DNA of 54,925 nt from Methanosaeta sp. PtaU1.Bin112 (GCA_002067705.1 MVRL01000109.1:1-54925); one strand, 5' to 3'; positions 39,161 through 48,248 are shown, numbered from the stretch's first letter. A program made the numbers and translations. The notes: generated from the sequence alone by a model not told the origin.

Positions 39161-39269
39161 TTCTAGAGGAGTGGAATGAAGGCAAAGTATCTAAAGGTAT
39201 GCGGTGCGGGGCGAAGGTGATCATACCCTAGACCTACCTTCCACTCGAAGGCGTCACTATAAAATGCCT

Positions 39270-40715
39270 TTAATGGACAGACAAAGACAATTCACGCAAA
39301 TTCGCCAATTCATGCCCTTCTTGAGAAAGCAGCTCTCTGGGAAAATATCGAATAATTGCTTCAGGGACAGAATACATGATCTTTTCTTGACCATGATATT
39401 GCTGTTCTTCTGCGAGTATCATATCGCTGATGTCCCAGATCTCTTTTGGATTTAGCTTGAGTCCACCTCGAAAAAGGTAAACATCATGATCAAAACCATA
39501 ACGATCATACATAGATTCATTAAATATCTGGGAACTGCGGGCCTTATGCCATAGGCGAGATCCTGGTAATGGAATGTACCATTGTATAGTCGCGCTTATT
39601 CCGTATCTGGAAATAAGCCGGAAAGCAAAATGGATAGTCTTTTCTACTTCTAATCTCGTCTCCCATGGAAACCCCACAATAAAGGAAAAGATTGCTCTTT
39701 CACCGATGTGATTCTCCTCCAATTTGCCAGCTGCTGCCTCTAGTGTTTGGCATGTGATGCCCTTCCCGATATTTTTCAGACCTTCGTTATAACCGCATTC
39801 AGCTCCTACAAAGACGCTACTGGTTATATCCGCAATATTCTCGATAAAGCCGTCTACGAGAAGATCTGTGGCGCGCGAGCAATATCTGATCTTGGGTTTT
39901 ATTCTTCTTTCCCGGATAATGCGAGCTATCTCTATTGCTCTTTTCGGGTCCGTTGAGAACTCGTCATCTACTATCTGAATCTCTTCACTTAATGTGCGAT
40001 CAAGATATTTCATCGTCCCTTCTAGCCGATCAACAAATCTTTCCGCAGAAATCGATCGCCAGCTACGTCGATATGAGGAGCTGCAGAAAGAGCAATCGTT
40101 TGCACAGCCGCGAGAAGACTCGATTGGCAAATAATGATAGACTTTTAGTGGCAGACTATCGTAATCCGGCAAGGGCAAAGAACCCAATTCATCCCCAGAA
40201 ATAGCAGGAGCAATTGGATTGCGGATGATTTCCCCATAATTGCTAATCCAACTCAGATTAGGTACATGCTTTAATCCTTTTGTATTCTCTAAATTGTCAC
40301 AAAGGGAAACCAACGCCCCTTCTCCTTCGCCTCGTATAACATATTGAACAGGGAATTTTTTCAATATGTATCCATCAAACATAGTTGGGTGGATTCCGCC
40401 CAACACTATTGGAACATCATTTCGGATCAGCCGTATCGCTTTTATCACATCAATAGCAGCTGGCCAAGAGAGAGTGCTTGTCCCAATTCCCACTAAAGAG
40501 CAATCATTTATATCGGCAAGATAAGGCCAGAGATTTGCAGAGCCTTGTGCTATGAGATCTGCTAATACCACATCATAGCCCTTGCTTTGAAGTATTGCCG
40601 CCAACAGGCATACACCATATGAAGGACATGCTCTGAGGGCGTCCATACCCTTAGGAATAAGTTGGCCTTCGTGGTTGTAATCCATTATAGGCGCTGCAAT
40701 TAAAACTACTTTCAT
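39270..40715 (-). CDS. B12-binding-domain radical SAM protein
   Basis: 481 residues. The N-terminal 150 form a cobalamin-binding Rossmann domain (MKVVLIAAPIMDYNHEG, YDVVLADLIA, IVLGGIHPTMF). The radical SAM barrel has SRGCANDCSFCSSS (CxxxCxxC), GAECGYNEGLKNIGKG, and the late GFPWET block. The class includes methyltransferases, cyclases and other B12-dependent tailoring enzymes. The start is ATG 40715, which gives the canonical strand. The last of five minus-strand genes starting with the Cys-rich peptide, 69 bases after the second SPASM protein. It could also modify a lipid or protein; product unknown. Confidence 0.88.
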   Translation of the reverse strand: MKVVLIAAPIMDYNHEGQLIPKGMDALRACPSYGVCLLAAILQSKGYDVVLADLIAQGSANLWPYLADINDCSLVGIGTSTLSWPAAIDVIKAIRLIRNDVPIVLGGIHPTMFDGYILKKFPVQYVIRGEGEGALVSLCDNLENTKGLKHVPNLSWISNYGEIIRNPIAPAISGDELGSLPLPDYDSLPLKVYHYLPIESSRGCANDCSFCSSSYRRSWRSISAERFVDRLEGTMKYLDRTLSEEIQIVDDEFSTDPKRAIEIARIIRERRIKPKIRYCSRATDLLVDGFIENIADITSSVFVGAECGYNEGLKNIGKGITCQTLEAAAGKLEENHIGERAIFSFIVGFPWETRLEVEKTIHFAFRLISRYGISATIQWYIPLPGSRLWHKARSSQIFNESMYDRYGFDHDVYLFRGGLKLNPKEIWDISDMILAEEQQYHGQEKIMYSVPEAIIRYFPRELLSQEGHELANLRELSLSVH

Positions 40716-40784
40716 AGTTATCGCACTAATTTTATAGATTTTGTGATATATTCGCAAGCGATACATAGACTACAATAAATAATT

Positions 40785-42128
40785 TTATCCCAGCGGGCGA
40801 TACGATGGTCCAAGCACGCTGGCCCATAGACTTTCAGTATGTATTTGCTTTAATAGTTCGCAATTAGGAGGGCACAGATTCAAAGATCCATAATTATAAA
40901 ATGAAACTGCTTTGCAGCTCCCTATGCAGAAATACCTCACATGACATCTTGCGCAATCTGATGAAACCTTATCTACGTCTAGAAAATTGTACTTCTTGTG
41001 CCCGATATTCAAGATCTCGCGAAGCTCAGATTTCGTCATATTTCCTAGAAATAATTTGGAATCTGTCAGGAGACGACAGGGCGATACCGATCCGTCGGGT
41101 TGAATCGCAAGCTGACCGTAACCAATTCCGCAATGGCTTCGACGAATACCGGGTACAGGCATAATGGTATGATCCGTAGCATCACTATGATCAAGATGCT
41201 TTGAGTTATAAGCGGATGATTCCATGATCTCGTGAGGTTTCAATTCAAGCCAAGGGGCGTTTGTTTTCGATCGATCACCTGATTTAAAGAAGAAAGAGGT
41301 TCCCAAGCGAATATTGTTTTCATCGCAGAATTGCTGCAAGCGCCAGATGCTTTTCTTGTTGATCTGCGTCACCGTCGAGGAGATCGCCACATTAATGCCT
41401 GCATCTATCATCCACTGGACAGCTTTAATGGCTTTCTCTAAGCTGCCTTGACCGCGTGTTCTGGCGTTTTCCTCTGGCACCAGACTATCGATGCTGACCT
41501 GAACTCTGAGCTTTGATATCTTTGATAGGCGCAAGACTAGATCCTCAGTGAAAAGCGTTCCGTTCGTCACGAGCCTGATTTTCAGACCATTTCGGGAGAT
41601 TCCTTCTATGATATCGATTGCATCGGCTCTGATAAGTGGTTCGCCACCCGAGACAGATATCATCGCCTCGGGATTGATTGTAGCGACTTCATCTGCTAGT
41701 TTAATCCAAAACTCGGTATCAAGCTCCTCATCACTTTTACTCATGGACGGAACGCTGTCGTAAAAGCAGAAAGGACAGTTCAAATTACATCGTCTGGTAA
41801 TGTAGAAATGAACAATTCCCAGTGGGTGGACGGGTAACACTTCGGTCTCGGTAAAGAATTGCTCCTGGAGAATAGACTCCGCAGCTTGGAGTAAATGCTC
41901 CAATTTTATTGAGCTATAGCGGAGGGACAGCAAATCAAATATGTCTTTTATGGATCGTTTGCCGTCGCAGAGCCGAATAAAATCTGCATGTAGTTTCGAT
42001 CCGATGAACCACCATGGTCCAAGAGGATTAAGAATAAGGAATTCACCGTTGCGGTCATCTACAAAGAGTCCTTGAACTGCGGGAAGAACTATCTCTTTCG
42101 ATATGCTTTCAACCTGATTTGACAACAT
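40785..42128 (-). CDS. Radical SAM/SPASM peptide-modifying enzyme B
   Basis: 447 residues. Residues about 20-105 are a PqqD/RRE-like region (FLILNPLGPWWFIGSKLHAD, then RLCDGKRSIKDIFDLL). The radical SAM cluster motif is RRCNLNCPFCFYD (near 131), followed by ISVSGGEPLI. The SPASM region has SHCGIGYGQ, GSVSPCRLL, DCARCHVRYFCIGSCKA and PPNC, enough Cys for two auxiliary clusters. This architecture installs thioether or C-C links in peptides (sactipeptides, ranthipeptides, PQQ-type). Likely start ATG 42128; a longer frame is open but overlaps enzyme A. Half its residues match enzyme A. Confidence 0.88.
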   Translation of the reverse strand: MLSNQVESISKEIVLPAVQGLFVDDRNGEFLILNPLGPWWFIGSKLHADFIRLCDGKRSIKDIFDLLSLRYSSIKLEHLLQAAESILQEQFFTETEVLPVHPLGIVHFYITRRCNLNCPFCFYDSVPSMSKSDEELDTEFWIKLADEVATINPEAMISVSGGEPLIRADAIDIIEGISRNGLKIRLVTNGTLFTEDLVLRLSKISKLRVQVSIDSLVPEENARTRGQGSLEKAIKAVQWMIDAGINVAISSTVTQINKKSIWRLQQFCDENNIRLGTSFFFKSGDRSKTNAPWLELKPHEIMESSAYNSKHLDHSDATDHTIMPVPGIRRSHCGIGYGQLAIQPDGSVSPCRLLTDSKLFLGNMTKSELREILNIGHKKYNFLDVDKVSSDCARCHVRYFCIGSCKAVSFYNYGSLNLCPPNCELLKQIHTESLWASVLGPSYRPLG

Positions 42129-42141
42129 AGAGTTCACAATT

Positions 42142-43488
42142 TCACCTATCTGTTTCTGCCAAGAAGGATGATCCGAGCACGCTGACCCAGAGGCCCTTGA
42201 GGTAAATTTGCTTAAGTTCGCTGCAATTTTTCGGAATATGGTGCGTCGTACCATAGTTATGCAAAGAATTGGCCCTGCACCCCCCTCCACAGAAGTATCT
42301 CATGGGACACTTGGAACTGCTGCATGGATCCATCCCATCAACATCGATATAACTGTACCTCTTATATCCAACTTCCGCGAGCTGCTCTATGTTTGATGTT
42401 TGAATATTTCCAAAATACAATGCTGGATCATTTAGATGACTGCATGGCAATACAGATCCGTCGGGACTGATATCAATCTGGCCATAGCCCGCGCCACAAC
42501 CATACCGGCGTTCACCCGGCACCATAGGATGCCCCATAGTTGTTTTATTATCAAAGTTCTCGAGGCAGTATGTTGATGCATCCAAGTAATCGTCACTGCT
42601 TAGTTCAAGCCATTGTGCATTTCTTTTAGACCTTTCACCAGATAGCATGAAAATCGATGACCGAAATTTTATGCTATTTTTGTTACAAAATTGTCTAAAT
42701 TGGCGAATGCTTTTTAGGTTGATCTGCGTTATTGTTGCAGATATCTCCACATCAATAGCTGCATCTCTTATATCTTGAACAGCCTTTAAAGCCTTTTCTA
42801 GGTTCCCTGGTCCTCGAGTTTTGGCATTCTCTTCCGGTATTATGCTATCAATACTAACTTGGATGCTAAATTTATCAATTTTTGAAAGTCTTGAGATAAT
42901 ATCACTTGTAAAAAGAGTGGCATTTGTTATCAGCTTAATCTCTAAATTATTCCGGGAAATGCCTTCGATGATGTCAATTGCATCAGGCCTTATTAGCGGT
43001 TCACCACCCGAAACAATGATTTTGGCTCGTGGATTGATCTTAGCAATATCATTCGAAAGCTTGATCCAAACATCTGAATCGAGTTCGTTCTCATGCTCTT
43101 TGCTCTGCGACGAAGCGCTATCATAATAACAGTAAGGACAACTCAAATTGCACCGCTTAGTGATGTTGAAAAATACGATGGAAAGCGGACGGATTTGAGA
43201 CTTTTCGGTAGCTGTAAAAAAATTCTCATCGAGCAGCGATTTCGTGATTTGAATTAAATTTTCATCGGTCACACCTTTGTATTGAGGTGATAGCGACTCA
43301 AATATATCACGCAAAGAACGTTTGCCGTCACAAAGCCGAACAAAGTCTGCATGTATCTTCGATCCAACGAACCACCATGGTCCAAGTGGATTAAGAACAA
43401 GATAATTTCCAAGTTTCTCATCAACAAAGAGTTCTGGGATCCTTGGAAGAATTGTTTCGCTTGATATATTTTGTCCTTCAGATATCAT
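42142..43488 (-). CDS. Radical SAM/SPASM peptide-modifying enzyme A
   Basis: 448 residues, same layout as enzyme B: PqqD/RRE-like segment (LVLNPLGPWWFVGSKIHADF, RLCDGKRSLRDIFESL), radical SAM motif KRCNLSCPYCYYD, IIVSGGEPLIRPD, then SPASM Cys in YGCGAGYGQ, SVLPCSH, DPCSSSKCPMRYFCGGGCRA and NC. Start ATG 43488: GGTG sits 6 bases before; the GTG at 43497 lies on that site. 27 bases after the C25 protease stop. Enzymes A and B are a tandem duplication that has diverged mostly in the middle of the barrel, which suggests two different residues or two steps on one peptide. Confidence 0.88.
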   Translation of the reverse strand: MISEGQNISSETILPRIPELFVDEKLGNYLVLNPLGPWWFVGSKIHADFVRLCDGKRSLRDIFESLSPQYKGVTDENLIQITKSLLDENFFTATEKSQIRPLSIVFFNITKRCNLSCPYCYYDSASSQSKEHENELDSDVWIKLSNDIAKINPRAKIIVSGGEPLIRPDAIDIIEGISRNNLEIKLITNATLFTSDIISRLSKIDKFSIQVSIDSIIPEENAKTRGPGNLEKALKAVQDIRDAAIDVEISATITQINLKSIRQFRQFCNKNSIKFRSSIFMLSGERSKRNAQWLELSSDDYLDASTYCLENFDNKTTMGHPMVPGERRYGCGAGYGQIDISPDGSVLPCSHLNDPALYFGNIQTSNIEQLAEVGYKRYSYIDVDGMDPCSSSKCPMRYFCGGGCRANSLHNYGTTHHIPKNCSELKQIYLKGLWVSVLGSSFLAETDR

Positions 43489-43515
43489 GATTATCACCTA
43501 AATTCTTAAACTTTT

Positions 43516-45258
43516 TTACTCACCGAGATCAGCGGTTGGGTCACCCAAGAGCAGGTACATTCGTATATTATCTATAGCGCAGTCATTCTTCAAGTTCGAG
43601 AACAGCTTGGTGACTGCCCAATTCATGATGTCACCGGCCTTGGTAAGCCCCTGGTTCACAATTCCATCGAAAATATACTTATTAAACGAATCATTTTCGG
43701 TTGTCCAAGATGGCCTTGAAGCTCCGAAGAAAGTGATCGCTTTCATGTTCTTGATCCACGCTTCACCGAAACATTCACCGTCCATATCGATATCATTATT
43801 CCAACAGGCTAAGCTCCAGACCATGGGTATATTCTTCCCATTATCCAGTTTATGTACGTCTTCATTTCCCAGTCCGTTTCCCGCCCTCCAGGCTGTTGGT
43901 GCGCCATGCCCTCTGTAGTTGATTATGCCCACACCCTTATTGACCGCGTCGATCACATCTGACTTGCTTGCTTGACCATCATACCTTTTAATTACATTGA
44001 AATGATCACCGATAATTCCGGCGATTTCATTGGCACAGTTTTCATATTTCGGAGGCTCTGCATTGCAGGTCGTCAGCAGACAATTGGCGCGCCCAACTCT
44101 TTCGCATTTACCATAAAGGACCGAATTTTTGCAGAACGTCTTCATCATTTCAGGATCAGAAATAGGGATCCTCGAAACGACGATTTCTGGGATTATGTCT
44201 CCTCGCAGATCTGCGTAGAAATGATCAGATGCAATCTCCTGTTCATCAGATGAAGTGGCAATATGTGTGGGAATCTTGTCCACATCTCCCCCTAACACCA
44301 CCCATTGAGGTGTTCCCTGCCAATTATCCATAGCATATGATAAGAAGTCCTTGATCGCCTCGTCCTCTTTTGGATTTGGGAACTCCTGAATGATCTCTGT
44401 TTTAGTGACAAGCTTGACCGTACGAGCAGACAATTGAGCCTTGATAAGCTCGTCAAATGAATCCTTCAGGTCGTCGGTGGTAATGATAAGGTATTCGGCA
44501 TCATTTGTGGGATCCTTTAGGCCTGAGGAGGCCTTATTGGATGTTTTTCTTTTCGGTTCTTCCCCCAGCCATTTAGTCTCATTTAGGCGTTCAGGATCTA
44601 GGATCATCCTCTCAATAAGAAGCCTGCGAGACGTCCTCTTGCGCGGGGATGCGCACATTTCATACCTAGTTTTATATATAATATTAAAATCAATGGATTC
44701 GAGCAAGGACAACTTCTTCGACTTTGGCCGATATTGTGCTGGATAGATCAGGATATGAGCCACCCTCCGACCTGCGACATTTGCGGTGCCAAGCAGTTCG
44801 ACATATTTACCGGGGTATGGCTCGTCGCTTTCATATGTAGCTGTGTCGCGAATGTAGATCTCTTTTTCACCTTCATGGACAGGCTTGCTTGCCGGCAGGA
44901 CAAGGTATTCGCCTTCCAGTTCTTTCTCTTTTTTATCAATGATTTGAATGTCTTTTACCTCGCAATCATCGGGAATCGCAATAAATAATCCTTCTTGTGG
45001 TAAAGCTGGCAAGCCAGGAGCTCTCATAAGCGCTCCATCGGGAGTATTTAAATGATCAAAATCCTCACCTCTAAAAGATAGCTTATCATGCCATACGCCC
45101 TTTAGTTGATATGACACTCTCGTACTGCCAGATGCTCCTTCAGCATTTTTTTCCATTTGGGCATTTGAGAGAGACATCAACGATGCATTCTTTATCGAGC
45201 AAATCCCTGCTCGAGCCTCAGGGACAACTGGAATCCACTTTCTGCGATTCTTATCCAT
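43516..45258 (-). CDS. Gingipain-like (C25) cysteine protease without signal peptide
   Basis: 580 residues. Residues about 50-200 resemble the C25 propeptide (MRAPGLPALPQEGLFIAIP, then VAGRRVAHILIYPAQYRPKS). The catalytic domain starts near 250 (DAEYLIITTDDLKDSFDELI) and shows the caspase-like dyad: His in GIINYRGHGAPTAW and Cys in MVWSLACWNNDIDMDGECFGEAW. The N-terminus is polar (MDKNRRKWIPVVPEARAG), so unlike gingipains it should stay in the cytoplasm. Between the peptide gene and two radical SAM enzymes, the natural role is removing the leader of the modified peptide. C25 enzymes prefer Arg or Lys before the cut, and the peptide has Lys just before its Cys cluster. Role is inference. Confidence 0.85.
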   Translation of the reverse strand: MDKNRRKWIPVVPEARAGICSIKNASLMSLSNAQMEKNAEGASGSTRVSYQLKGVWHDKLSFRGEDFDHLNTPDGALMRAPGLPALPQEGLFIAIPDDCEVKDIQIIDKKEKELEGEYLVLPASKPVHEGEKEIYIRDTATYESDEPYPGKYVELLGTANVAGRRVAHILIYPAQYRPKSKKLSLLESIDFNIIYKTRYEMCASPRKRTSRRLLIERMILDPERLNETKWLGEEPKRKTSNKASSGLKDPTNDAEYLIITTDDLKDSFDELIKAQLSARTVKLVTKTEIIQEFPNPKEDEAIKDFLSYAMDNWQGTPQWVVLGGDVDKIPTHIATSSDEQEIASDHFYADLRGDIIPEIVVSRIPISDPEMMKTFCKNSVLYGKCERVGRANCLLTTCNAEPPKYENCANEIAGIIGDHFNVIKRYDGQASKSDVIDAVNKGVGIINYRGHGAPTAWRAGNGLGNEDVHKLDNGKNIPMVWSLACWNNDIDMDGECFGEAWIKNMKAITFFGASRPSWTTENDSFNKYIFDGIVNQGLTKAGDIMNWAVTKLFSNLKNDCAIDNIRMYLLLGDPTADLGE

Positions 45259-45333
45259 TTACATCACCAATTATCAATATATGACGTTTTCATTACATAA
45301 ATTTTATTATTTATTATATTTAAAACAAATATA

Positions 45334-45371
45334 CAACTTGGATTGAAAGATTATCTTTTCAACCCAAGTTG
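45334..45371 (-). terminator. Strong stem-loop between peptide gene and protease gene
   Basis: On the minus strand CAACTTGGGTTGAAAAGA and TCTTTCAATCCAAGTTG pair over about 17 bp with one wobble and one bulged A, around a TAA loop. A T-rich stretch (TATATTTGTTTTAAAT) follows. It starts 13 bases after the peptide stop. It probably acts as a partial terminator or RNA stabiliser, making the peptide message more abundant than the enzyme part. Confidence 0.7.
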
Positions 45372-45383
45372 CATCGTTTGCCT

Positions 45384-45521
45384 CTAAGGGTCAACCTTTA
45401 CTTGGCAGCCCATTATGCAGCCGCACCCACAGCCGTCTTTGCCCTTAACTTCAGTCGCAAACTGATCAAGCGCCTTTGCCGGGACCTTAATCTTAAAGGT
45501 CATTTCCTTTTCATCTGCCAT
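45384..45521 (-). CDS. Cys-rich 45-aa peptide, candidate RiPP precursor
   Basis: The minus strand from ATG 45521 reads MADEKEMTFKIKVPAKALDQ, then FATEVKGKDG, then CGCGCIMGC, ending QVKVDP and TAG at 45384. GGAGTG lies 7 bases before ATG. A charged, helix-forming leader of about 30 residues precedes a core with Cys at 31, 33, 35 and 39. Five genes follow in the same direction: C25 protease, two radical SAM/SPASM enzymes with PqqD-like parts, and a B12 radical SAM protein. This is the composition of a RiPP operon. I know no described family with this Cys pattern. A small metal-binding protein is the main alternative. Confidence 0.8.
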   Translation of the reverse strand: MADEKEMTFKIKVPAKALDQFATEVKGKDGCGCGCIMGCQVKVDP

Positions 45522-45551
45522 ATTTCTTCACTCCGCACTTTTTTTTATTAT

Positions 45552-45586
45552 TCCTAAGATACACACTTGAAGTTTATATCCTAAGA
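45552..45586 (-). promoter_or_regulatory. Promoter of the peptide operon with flanking direct repeats
   Basis: The TATA box GATATAAACT (minus strand, 45571-45580) would start RNA near 45550, about 29 bases before the peptide ATG. TCCTAAGA occurs on the plus strand at 45552-45559 and 45579-45586, 27 bases apart, one copy overlapping the TATA box and the other near the RNA start. This is a plausible regulator site. Confidence 0.5.
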
Positions 45587-45654
45587 ACAAAACTAAGTAG
45601 TGGAATAAGTAGTATAAATTACTTTGGGCACTCCATCTAGCCATAAGCATCAAT

Positions 45655-47275
45655 AATTTAGGCATATAGTATTTTTTTTTTCAATATCCATAGTAGATAT
45701 CTATTTGTACCATTATGTGCCAAATCGGCACATGAAATCTTTTATTAGAATTAAAAAGATAAAAGGTCATGAATATTTATATGAAATCACCCCATTCTAT
45801 GACAAAGAAAAGAAGCAGATTAGACAGAAAAGTAAGTATCTCGGGAAAAATATTAATGGAGTACCAGTCAAAGTTCGCACTCGAGACCAAATGCCAAAAA
45901 AAATACTGTCTCACGGCGAGTTCGTGCTGCTGAAACAGATAGTGGAAAAGCTAAAACTGGAAGCAGTTCTCTCAGAGATCTTTCCCAGCAATGATGTCTG
46001 GGCAATTTTAACTTTGGCAATGAATTATGCCATACGCCCCAAATCATTAATCCATATCCAGAGCTGGTACGAAGGCACAATCTTATCAGAAGATCACCCT
46101 GATCTTCCGCTATCATTCCACAACCTTTCAAGAATGCTAAGCTCCATCGGAGAGGGAACAACAATTCTCGAATTTTCTCATAAGTTCATTCAACAAGTTT
46201 CCACATCGGAAACTCTGATCTACGACATAACATCCTTATCATCTTACTCTCAGAAAACAAGCTTTACTAAATTTGGCTGCAATCGAGATGACCTTGACCT
46301 ACCTCCGGTCAATCTGGCGCTAATAGTTGATAAAGATCTAGGCATACCGATAATGTACGACCTTTCTCTTGGAGGCATTTCAGATGCAACTGCCCTAAAG
46401 AATACAGTCAAGAAAATGAACGCGCAAGGCGTCAGAAATCGCGGGCTGATAATGGACAGAGGTTTCTTCTCAACCGAAAACATCGATGAGATGGTGTCTG
46501 CAGACCTGCCATTTATCATCCCTCCCACCAACAGTATTAAGAAATTTAAGGAAGCGATATCGAACATTAATAGAACCATAGACAATCCTGAAAATTTAAA
46601 CATTTATGAAAAAGAACCACTGTTTGTAATGCCTATAAGCATCGATATAGGCGAAAATATGGTAGAAGGATATGCATATTACGATCAAAAACTAGAGCAA
46701 CATGAAAGAAACATATTTTATAAGCGATTATACGATTTGATGACCGTACTCAGATCAAAGAAATTGAAGCCCTGGCTAAATCCTGGAGAAGTTTTCAGGG
46801 CCACCGCGAAAAAAGATGCTAAATTCATTGAGTGGAAAGCCGTCGACGGCAAATTTCAAGTTTCACTAAAGAAAAACACAATCTTACAAGCCGTTAATAA
46901 AATGGGCAAATTCATCCTGCTCTATAGAGGGGAATTCTCTTGGATAGATTGCCTTTCGCTCTACAAAAGCAAAGATGTGGTAGAAAAAAGATTTGATGTC
47001 CTGAAAAACGATATCGATATAATTCCGGCTAATGCAACTACCGCCAGCAGTTTAAGAGGTTACATATTCATTGTGTTCCTTGCCCTAATCCTAAGAATGA
47101 AGCTCACAAAGATCATGATAGGTGCTGGTCTGAACAAAAAATATTCTGTAGACGGATTGCTTACTGAGCTGGAAAAAATAAAAATTATGATCTTGCCCAA
47201 TGGCAAAAGAATCACAACTGAAGTGACCAAAGAACAACACGAAATACTGGATGCACTTCATATATGTGCCTAATT
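45655..47275 (+). mobile_element. IS1634-like insertion sequence
   Basis: A single transposase gene lies between imperfect terminal inverted repeats: AATTTAGGCATATAG at the left (45655-45669) and, reversed, AATTAGGCACATATATG at the right (47259-47275). The exact outer ends and target duplication are uncertain. It is apparently intact and sits 70 bases upstream of the peptide-operon promoter repeats. Confidence 0.7.
45732..47273 (+). CDS. IS1634-family transposase
   Basis: A DDE transposase of about 513 residues. Acidic catalytic blocks are in ETLIYDITSLSSYS, NRGLIMDRGFFSTENID and KDVVEKRFDVLKND (Glu followed by the RFDxLK signature). The start ATG 45732 lies inside a perfect hairpin, ATGTGCC-AAATC-GGCACAT (45714-45732), which could block read-through translation from outside. 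The chain is full length without frameshifts, so the element may be active. Marked Ile/Lys-rich composition fits the AT-rich island. Confidence 0.9.
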   Translation: MKSFIRIKKIKGHEYLYEITPFYDKEKKQIRQKSKYLGKNINGVPVKVRTRDQMPKKILSHGEFVLLKQIVEKLKLEAVLSEIFPSNDVWAILTLAMNYAIRPKSLIHIQSWYEGTILSEDHPDLPLSFHNLSRMLSSIGEGTTILEFSHKFIQQVSTSETLIYDITSLSSYSQKTSFTKFGCNRDDLDLPPVNLALIVDKDLGIPIMYDLSLGGISDATALKNTVKKMNAQGVRNRGLIMDRGFFSTENIDEMVSADLPFIIPPTNSIKKFKEAISNINRTIDNPENLNIYEKEPLFVMPISIDIGENMVEGYAYYDQKLEQHERNIFYKRLYDLMTVLRSKKLKPWLNPGEVFRATAKKDAKFIEWKAVDGKFQVSLKKNTILQAVNKMGKFILLYRGEFSWIDCLSLYKSKDVVEKRFDVLKNDIDIIPANATTASSLRGYIFIVFLALILRMKLTKIMIGAGLNKKYSVDGLLTELEKIKIMILPNGKRITTEVTKEQHEILDALHICA

Positions 47276-47303
47276 GATTGGATTGTCACAATCTTTAACC
47301 ATT

Positions 47304-48248
47304 CTATTGATTTTTTAGCGTCTCCCCGATCGCCCTCTGGCTCTCCTCCGGCGTCCCTTTCGTGTTGACCTCGACCACCATCGCCCTTTCGAGGAGCGCC
47401 CGGAAAAAGCGGCTGCGCAGCTTCATCTTGAAGTCGCTTTTCACTAGCAGGTGAGGATTGTAGTAGCCGTTTTTCTCCAGTATCTCCAGCGCTGTAGCCG
47501 CATCAAGCACCCGCACGATCTCCACCTGGCCTGGATCGCGCTTGAGAAGTATCACATTTTCCAGGGTCGTGAGCGGCAGGATGCGGCCTTTGCCTATGGC
47601 CCAGCGCAGGTCCACCACCGCCCGGCCCTTCTCATCAAGGACCGCTTTGTCCACCAGCCCGGAAAACTCCTTCCAGATGTCGGCAAGGTCCGCCCGGATG
47701 TAGAAGTTCTTCTCAGATCCGTAAGCCAGAATATCCTCGCCGAAGATGCGAGCAAAGAACCAGTCATCTGAGACTACGCGCGCCTTGGGCTGTCGCAGAA
47801 GGCCGTAAGTATGAGTGGTCTTGCCTGCTCCCGACCCGCCCAGAATGCAGACCCCACGGCCCCGCATGTCCAGGCAGGCACCGTGAACTGAGTAGATGCC
47901 GTGATCGTCCTCCAGGATGTCTCCTGCCAGGGAGAGGGCGAGGGACTTTATCCAGCCGTAGTAGTCGATGTTAAAGAGAAAGCAGCTCTTGGAATGAGTA
48001 TCGTACAAAACTCGGTTGTCTCCGAACGCACTGTCCTGCAGAACATAGAGCCTTCCATGTGAACGAATGTTCTGAGAGGCAAAATAGAAGCTTTCCTCCC
48101 AGGCGTTCTTGACGGAAAGGCTGCCGGTGAGAAGCTTGATGCAACAGCCATAAATCTCCGACTTGATCTCATAGAGCACCTGGCCTGCGTATCTCTCGAT
48201 CAGCTCTTCCTTCTGCTCCATGGTTATTATCTTTACCGAATAAGCCAT
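47304..48248 (-). CDS. HPr kinase-like P-loop protein
   Basis: 314 residues. The C-terminal half has a PEPCK-type kinase core: SVHGACLDMRGRGVCILGGS, then GAGKTTHTYGLL (Walker A), ARVVSDDWFF with two Asp, as in HPr kinase/phosphorylase. The N-terminal half (ITMEQKEELIERYAGQVLYEIK) is unlike the bacterial HPrK regulatory domain. No HPr or phosphotransferase system is expected in a methanogen. It runs in the same direction as and after phosphoglycerate mutase and PfkB genes, so a link to sugar phosphate metabolism is plausible. Start ATG 48248 (MAYSVKIITME); an upstream frame adds seven residues. Confidence 0.75.
   Translation of the reverse strand: MAYSVKIITMEQKEELIERYAGQVLYEIKSEIYGCCIKLLTGSLSVKNAWEESFYFASQNIRSHGRLYVLQDSAFGDNRVLYDTHSKSCFLFNIDYYGWIKSLALSLAGDILEDDHGIYSVHGACLDMRGRGVCILGGSGAGKTTHTYGLLRQPKARVVSDDWFFARIFGEDILAYGSEKNFYIRADLADIWKEFSGLVDKAVLDEKGRAVVDLRWAIGKGRILPLTTLENVILLKRDPGQVEIVRVLDAATALEILEKNGYYNPHLLVKSDFKMKLRSRFFRALLERAMVVEVNTKGTPEESQRAIGETLKNQ

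What the first reader, a model, noticed from the sequence alone, without database searches (positions are those of the whole stretch)
39270..45521. Candidate undescribed RiPP system in a methanogen: Cys-rich peptide + C25 protease + two SPASM radical SAM enzymes + B12 radical SAM
Seen: five same-strand genes starting with a 45-residue ORF that encodes CxCxCxxxC near its C-terminus. They are followed by a caspase-like C25 protease lacking a signal peptide, two radical SAM/SPASM proteins with PqqD/RRE-like N-termini, and a cobalamin-binding radical SAM protein. Known: SPASM enzymes with PqqD-like domains install thioether or C-C crosslinks on precursor peptides, and proteases remove leaders. Inference: the peptide is crosslinked at Cys, perhaps methylated or otherwise altered by the B12 enzyme, then cut after a Lys in VKGKDG. 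I know of no described class with this gene set and Cys pattern.
Basis: partly seen in the sequence, partly recalled or inferred. Interest (0 to 1): 0.88.

Follow-up and report, generated by a model that had tools for sequence, protein, structure and literature searches.

The report
Rare twin-radical-SAM peptide cluster in methanogen
A methane-producing archaeon carries, on a piece of DNA its sister species lack, genes that appear to make a tiny cysteine-rich peptide and chemically remodel it with a matched pair of radical enzymes; the same peptide-plus-pair recurs in two bacteria (and the enzyme pair in a third), so this is a real, very rare and apparently undescribed peptide-modification system.

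Summary
Five minus-strand genes lie at 45521-39270: a 45-aa peptide, a C25 protease, two SPASM radical SAM proteins and a B12 radical SAM protein. One GTDB-wide scan found three further loci with the same SPASM pair, in two Bacillota genomes and one Chloroflexota genome. In both loci with intact upstream sequence the peptide gene sits just before the pair, ending in [ND]-GCGCGC-[IV]-[LM]-G-xx-VKVDP; between the window and L030, 10 of 16 core codons differ synonymously and one nonsynonymously. A strong hairpin follows the peptide gene in all three. Both enzymes have a PqqD-like (RRE) N-terminus and seven SPASM cysteines, and form two orthologous groups. The operon plus an IS1634-family element is an 8.1-kb, AT-richer island; a same-genus relative has 101 bp there. 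No other member turned up in about 1,440 sampled genomes. The conserved core is peptide + hairpin + SPASM pair; C25 and B12 genes and the fourth Cys are not conserved. Best reading: a new family of radical-SAM RiPPs, probably thioether-type, paired like thuricin CD's TrnC/TrnD but unrelated at family level. Product chemistry and function are untested.

The parts
45384..45521 (-). Precursor peptide gene, 45 aa; leader with conserved IK[IV]P, core [ND]GCGCGC[IV][LM]Gxx-VKVDP
   Evidence: synonymous-dominated core changes
45330..45376 (-). Strong hairpin followed by U-rich stretch directly after the precursor gene; probable leaky terminator or processing element (also present in L030 and L031)
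   Evidence: z = -7.2 (L030 -5.4, L031 -3.8)
43516..45258 (-). C25 (gingipain-type, clan CD) cysteine protease with propeptide-like domain and no signal peptide; proposed leader protease; not conserved in the other loci
42142..43497 (-). SPASM1: radical SAM/SPASM enzyme with PqqD-like RRE N-terminus
40785..42137 (-). SPASM2: paralogous radical SAM/SPASM enzyme with PqqD-like RRE N-terminus (GTG start, 4 bases after SPASM1)
39270..40715 (-). B12-binding radical SAM protein, putative tailoring (C-methyl) enzyme; absent beside the pair in L030 and L031
45651..47280 (+). IS1634-family element (transposase 45705-47273, terminal inverted repeats 45651-45668 / 47263-47280), part of the same island
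39216..47312 (.). Acquired island, 8.1 kb, 37-46% GC inside 48-59% GC flanks; the relative G011 has 101 bp here between the same flanking genes

Best explanation
A rare RiPP biosynthetic module. The 45-aa peptide is the precursor: residues 1 to about 29 are a leader, with the conserved IK[IV]P stretch as the likely RRE-binding site, and the last 16 residues (GCGCGC-x2-G-xx-VKVDP) are the core. Two paralogous SPASM radical SAM enzymes, each with an RRE and two auxiliary-cluster Cys sets, bind the leader, probably as a pair. They use 5'-deoxyadenosyl radicals to join the three alternating Cys thiols to carbons of residues in or after the core (sactionine- or ranthipeptide-like thioethers). In this archaeon a cytoplasmic C25 protease then probably removes the leader, and a B12 radical SAM enzyme probably adds a methyl group. 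The hairpin after the precursor gene would keep precursor transcript in excess over enzyme transcript. Shown by sequence: precursor conservation, pairing, RRE, cluster ligands, operon order, island. Inferred: thioether chemistry, complex formation, leader cut, methylation. Unknown: activity of the product.
For: Peptide sits directly before the same SPASM pair in L030 and L031, across two domains of life; core codons change synonymously 10:1 between window and L030. SPASM1 and SPASM2 are separate orthologous groups in all four loci (57-70% within the SPASM1 group, 53-66% within the SPASM2 group, 41-57% between), so both are kept. RRE: hhalign 93.7% vs at most 6.1% in shuffled controls. Both enzymes carry CxxxCxxC and seven SPASM Cys. 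Post-precursor hairpin in three of three loci. The core has no aromatic residue, so known aromatic C-C or ether crosslinks are excluded, leaving Cys as the obvious target (sequence). Precedent that two SPASM enzymes act together through RREs: TrnC/TrnD (PMC12093266). Nearest curated model for both enzymes is a sactipeptide maturase.
Against: No product, mass or activity is known. Only four loci exist to compare, one cut by an assembly gap on the precursor side (L032). Every curated maturase model scores far below its cut-off (133-147 bits against 625 for StsB), so chemistry cannot be transferred. Acceptor residues are unknown. C25 and B12 genes are present in one locus only, so their roles rest on operon position. 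The AlphaFold model was too poor to confirm the RRE fold. No exporter or immunity gene lies in the island, unusual for a bacteriocin.
Confidence: 0.7

Rival explanations
1. The product is an intracellular metal-binding or redox peptide (cofactor or metallophore) rather than an exported antimicrobial: alternating CGCGC thiols, partly crosslinked or otherwise altered, bind a metal or serve as a redox group.
For: No exporter or immunity gene in the 8.1-kb island and none in the minimal L030 module; CxCxC is a metal-ligand-like spacing; PQQ and mycofactocin are SPASM-made non-antimicrobial precedents (own knowledge).
Against: No partner enzyme that would use a cofactor is linked, and such rarity is unlike a cofactor. 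An exporter could be encoded elsewhere.
Confidence: 0.3
2. The SPASM pair does non-thioether chemistry on the peptide (epimerisation, backbone or side-chain oxidation, C-C bonds at Val/Lys), with Cys serving only as cluster or hydrogen-atom donors or disulfides.
For: SPASM enzymes do many reactions; no curated thioether maturase model passes its cut-off; VKVDP is as conserved as the Cys.
Against: Three invariant Cys and no aromatic residue in the core; nearest models include sactipeptide and ranthipeptide maturases (StsB, PapB, AlbA).
Confidence: 0.2
3. The C25 and B12 genes are chance neighbours on the island; only peptide and SPASM pair form the system.
For: Neither is beside the pair in L030 or L031. 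B12 relatives exist elsewhere in this genome and genus.
Against: C25 lies between precursor and SPASM1 on the same strand, 18 bases before SPASM1, and is the only close C25 copy in the genome. L031 also has a caspase-fold-like (weak C13) protease right after the pair.
Confidence: 0.3
4. Artefact: bacterial contamination or chimeric assembly placed a bacterial cluster on an archaeal contig, or the peptide ORF is non-coding.
For: Relatives are bacterial; GC differs from the flanks; the assembly is a draft of 200 contigs.
Against: Both flanks are syntenic with a same-genus genome (MCM side 82%, HprK-like/gpm side 73% DNA identity), with a clean 101-bp site in the relative; the peptide is conserved with synonymous changes.
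Confidence: 0.03

Closest known systems
Thuricin CD / thuricin Z paired sactisynthases (TrnC/TrnD, ThzC/ThzD)
   Same: Two paralogous SPASM radical SAM enzymes encoded with a short Cys-containing precursor; TrnC/TrnD act as a tight complex joined through their RRE regions (PMC12093266).
   Different: TrnC/TrnD serve two precursors with about 30-residue cores. Here one precursor, a 16-residue core with GCGCGC, no exporter, another enzyme family.
StsB-family and streptosactin (GggB) sactipeptide maturases
   Same: StsB model is the best NCBIfam match to both enzymes (133 and 147 bits); streptosactin too is a very short sactipeptide.
   Different: Far below the family cut-off (625 bits); single maturase in streptosactin; different precursor.
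PapB and SCIFF (CteB-type) ranthipeptide maturases
   Same: SPASM enzymes making Cys thioethers; CteB has an RRE.
   Different: No SCIFF or CX3D/CX3E-type repeat in the peptide; PapB model 75-82 bits against cut-off 340.
PqqD-PqqE and mycofactocin MftB-MftC
   Same: PqqD-like domain plus SPASM enzyme; cytoplasmic product class.
   Different: The known targets include a Tyr; this core has no aromatic residue.
ApyD (B12 radical SAM beta-methylase of aminopyruvatide)
   Same: Best NCBIfam match of the B12 enzyme (122 bits); a RiPP C-methyltransferase (PMC10635010).
   Different: Below cut-off 750; ApyD methylates a penultimate Tyr, absent here.
Clo7bot / CcpM Cys-rich peptide system
   Same: Neighbouring cluster in L031, also a Cys-rich peptide with a SPASM maturase.
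   Different: Separate genes with their own precursor (L031:3723-3938) and CcpM (TIGR04068, 542 bits); not related to the pair.

Membership tests
Radical-SAM RiPP (general) | Short precursor gene next to a peptide-modifying radical SAM enzyme, conserved together | tested here: met
   Window, L030 and L031
Radical-SAM RiPP (general) | RRE (PqqD-like) domain for leader binding | tested here: met
   hhalign 93.7% vs shuffled maximum 6.1%; the fold model was too poor to add support
Radical-SAM RiPP (general) | Intact CxxxCxxC and SPASM auxiliary-cluster Cys | tested here: met
Sactipeptide | Cys-S to alpha-carbon thioether in the product | not testable with these tools
   Needs MS/NMR of the product
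Sactipeptide | Maturase passes a curated sactipeptide maturase model | tested here: not met
   StsB 133/147 bits vs 625; AlbA 71.6 vs 850 (SPASM2); GggB not among the best 25
Sactipeptide | Cys donors ahead of acceptor residues in the core (usual hairpin) | tested here: inconclusive
   Three Cys precede ten residues incl. VKVDP; acceptors unknown
Ranthipeptide (PapB / SCIFF) | Maturase passes the PapB or SCIFF model; CX3D/E or six-Cys precursor | tested here: not met
   PapB 82/75 bits vs 340; precursor pattern differs
Thuricin CD-type paired maturases | Two SPASM enzymes acting as one complex | not tested
   Pair conserved in four loci; no complex modelled
Peptidase family C25 | Pfam C25 domain with His-Cys dyad | tested here: met
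   E 2e-59; dyad aligned to gingipain R
B12 radical SAM methyltransferase | B12-binding plus radical SAM domains with CxxxCxxC | tested here: met
   CANDCSFC in the translation
ApyD subfamily | Passes NF050148 cut-off | tested here: not met
   122 bits vs 750

The most novel reading that the evidence does not exclude
A previously undescribed RiPP class whose defining unit is one GCGCGC...VKVDP precursor and an obligate pair of RRE-SPASM enzymes, passed between anaerobic bacteria and a methanogen, with caspase-fold proteases recruited separately for leader removal (C25 in the archaeon, a C13-like one in Anaerobacterium), and yielding a non-exported thioether peptide with a metal or redox role.
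Probability: 0.25. Interest if true: 0.78.

Novelty: new variant of a known kind. Interest (0 to 1): 0.62.

Why it matters
According to PMC12144867, functionally characterised archaeal RiPPs are few and were lanthipeptides; archaeal radical-SAM RiPPs are predicted but uncharacterised. This is a compact, testable module with its minimal form defined by bacterial relatives (three genes in L030). It offers a second, independent case of paired SPASM maturases to test whether two-enzyme cooperation, as in thuricin CD, is a general design. It also gives a documented cross-domain transfer with an empty site, and a possible first role for C25 proteases in leader removal (a 2023 review of RiPP leader proteases mentions neither C25 nor C13: PMC10885120).

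Tried and rejected
Methanothrix-wide system: rejected, nothing above 32% identity for SPASM1 in 60 relatives and no second peptide. Known NCBIfam/Pfam/PHROG precursor family: none. Members on viruses or plasmids: none close. Next-nearest SPASM proteins in Bacillota (E about 1e-50, L074-L082): single enzymes in other gene contexts without this precursor, so a different family. AlphaFold of SPASM1: N-terminal part below confidence, not used except to note a strand-strand-helices order. AlphaFold of the L031 protease: pLDDT 32, discarded; its clan CD nature rests on a sub-threshold Pfam C13 match (20.1 vs 22.8 bits), His-Gly and CHSGG-like motifs and a weak metacaspase match. Reading the C25 P1 preference from the gingipain alignment: the S1-pocket Asp falls in a gap, so undecidable. 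The idea that C25 cuts after Lys and the C13-like enzyme after Asn (L031 has ASN before GCGCGC) fits the sequences but is untested. A search for the L031 protease in the L030, L032 and window genomes found none. dN/dS by NG86 failed because synonymous sites are saturated; codon counts were used instead.

Full report
Observation. The peptide has a Shine-Dalgarno-like GGAGTGA upstream. C25 starts 125 bases after the peptide stop. SPASM1 starts 18 bases after C25 ends, SPASM2 (GTG at 42137) 4 bases after SPASM1, and B12 (ATG 40715) about 69 bases after SPASM2, so the enzyme genes look co-transcribed. Domains were confirmed by Pfam; the gingipain His and Cys align.

Is the peptide real? In 60 relatives nothing similar exists. 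A GTDB-wide scan with the SPASM pair found three loci: L030 (Bacillota reactor MAG), L031 (Anaerobacterium chartisolvens) and L032 (Chloroflexota MAG). In L030 and L031 a 45-46 aa ORF with a good ribosome-binding site sits just before SPASM1. The three peptides share MAD, IK[IV]P and GCGCGC..G..VKVDP, 18 invariant positions. Between window and L030, the 16 core codons show 10 synonymous and 1 nonsynonymous differences. That is purifying selection on protein. In L032 an assembly gap cuts SPASM1 on the precursor side, and no precursor was found elsewhere in that genome.

What is conserved. Core module: precursor, hairpin, SPASM1, SPASM2. The hairpin is strong in all three loci (z -7.2, -5.4, -3.8), as expected of a leaky terminator that favours precursor transcript (inference). 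L030 carries nothing else on that strand: unrelated genes on the opposite strand lie on both sides. L031 adds a 409-aa protein with a weak Peptidase_C13 match and no other long co-directional gene after it in the held sequence. C25 and B12 are thus additions seen only in the archaeon. The fourth Cys is not conserved, and neither is any Lys before the core.

The enzyme pair. SPASM1 proteins are 57-70% identical to each other, SPASM2 proteins 53-66%, and the two groups 41-57%. The duplication is therefore older than the spread of the system, and both copies have been kept. Each has CxxxCxxC and seven SPASM Cys, spaced Cx4C in SPASM1 and Cx2C in SPASM2 at one point. The first 105 residues match PqqD at 93.7% by profile comparison; 60 column-shuffled controls reached at most 6.1%. 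The AlphaFold model was low-confidence in this region.

Spread and origin. A search of 295 genomes of the archaeal phylum found the pair only in the window's own genome. Samples of 391 genomes of the class of L031, 398 of the phylum of L030 and 350 of the phylum of L032 each gave only the known member at family-level scores. Next-nearest proteins (E about 1e-50) have other contexts. In the window the operon and an IS1634-family element fill 39216-47312 at 37-46% GC against 48-59% in the flanks. In the same-genus relative G011 the flanking genes are joined by only 101 bp: a clean empty site, and good evidence that the island is on the archaeal chromosome. Neighbouring genes are archaeal core genes by their translations (own reading of exosome, proteasome, MCM).

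Mechanism. The core lacks aromatic residues, which excludes the known aromatic crosslinks; three invariant alternating Cys make thioether formation the most likely reaction. Both enzymes have an RRE and neither has been lost, so joint action on one precursor, as shown for TrnC/TrnD on thuricin CD (PMC12093266), is the most economical model. C25 as leader protease and B12 as methylase are reasonable from position and family (ApyD is a RiPP beta-methylase, PMC10635010) but rest on one locus. No exporter is present in the island or in the L030 module, so an intracellular role must stay open.

Known or new. No NCBIfam, Pfam or PHROG model covers the peptide; all maturase models score far below cut-off. 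Paper searches found no description of this gene set; a 2025 archaeal RiPP survey reports archaeal sacti/ranthipeptide-type clusters only as predictions and characterises lanthipeptides (PMC12144867). The library holds open-licence papers only, so a description elsewhere cannot be excluded. I file it as a new variant of a known kind: a new family of radical-SAM RiPPs, real and rare, with unknown product.

Noticed in passing
L056 (same genome, contig C180) 3707-12476: Three B12 radical SAM paralogues (33-36% identical to the window's) beside a ParA-like ATPase, a protein that looks like a PqqD-like domain fused to a membrane M50-type protease (by eye), and a SPASM radical SAM protein: a possible second, unrelated peptide-modification cluster in this archaeon.
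   Followed up: partly
L031 3723-8977: A Clo7bot-type Cys-rich peptide cluster (precursor, CcpM, TIGR04066 protein, small carrier-like protein, QhpE-like subtilase) lies directly upstream of the twin-SPASM module in Anaerobacterium chartisolvens.
   Followed up: partly
L030 8628-9467 and 12937-13743: Two CAAX-type (Rce1-like) membrane proteases on the opposite strand flank the L030 module on both sides; possibly immunity or chance.
   Followed up: no
window 45651-47280: IS1634-family element with degenerate 18-bp terminal inverted repeats shares the island with the operon and may have helped its transfer.
   Followed up: partly
L074-L082: Nearest outside SPASM family in Bacillota: single SPASM genes in a recurring context (small membrane protein after it and a response-regulator-like protein before it); function not examined.
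   Followed up: no
L045 (G019 C382): The only other C25-like protease hit among 40 relatives (27% identity, 853-aa frame).
   Followed up: no
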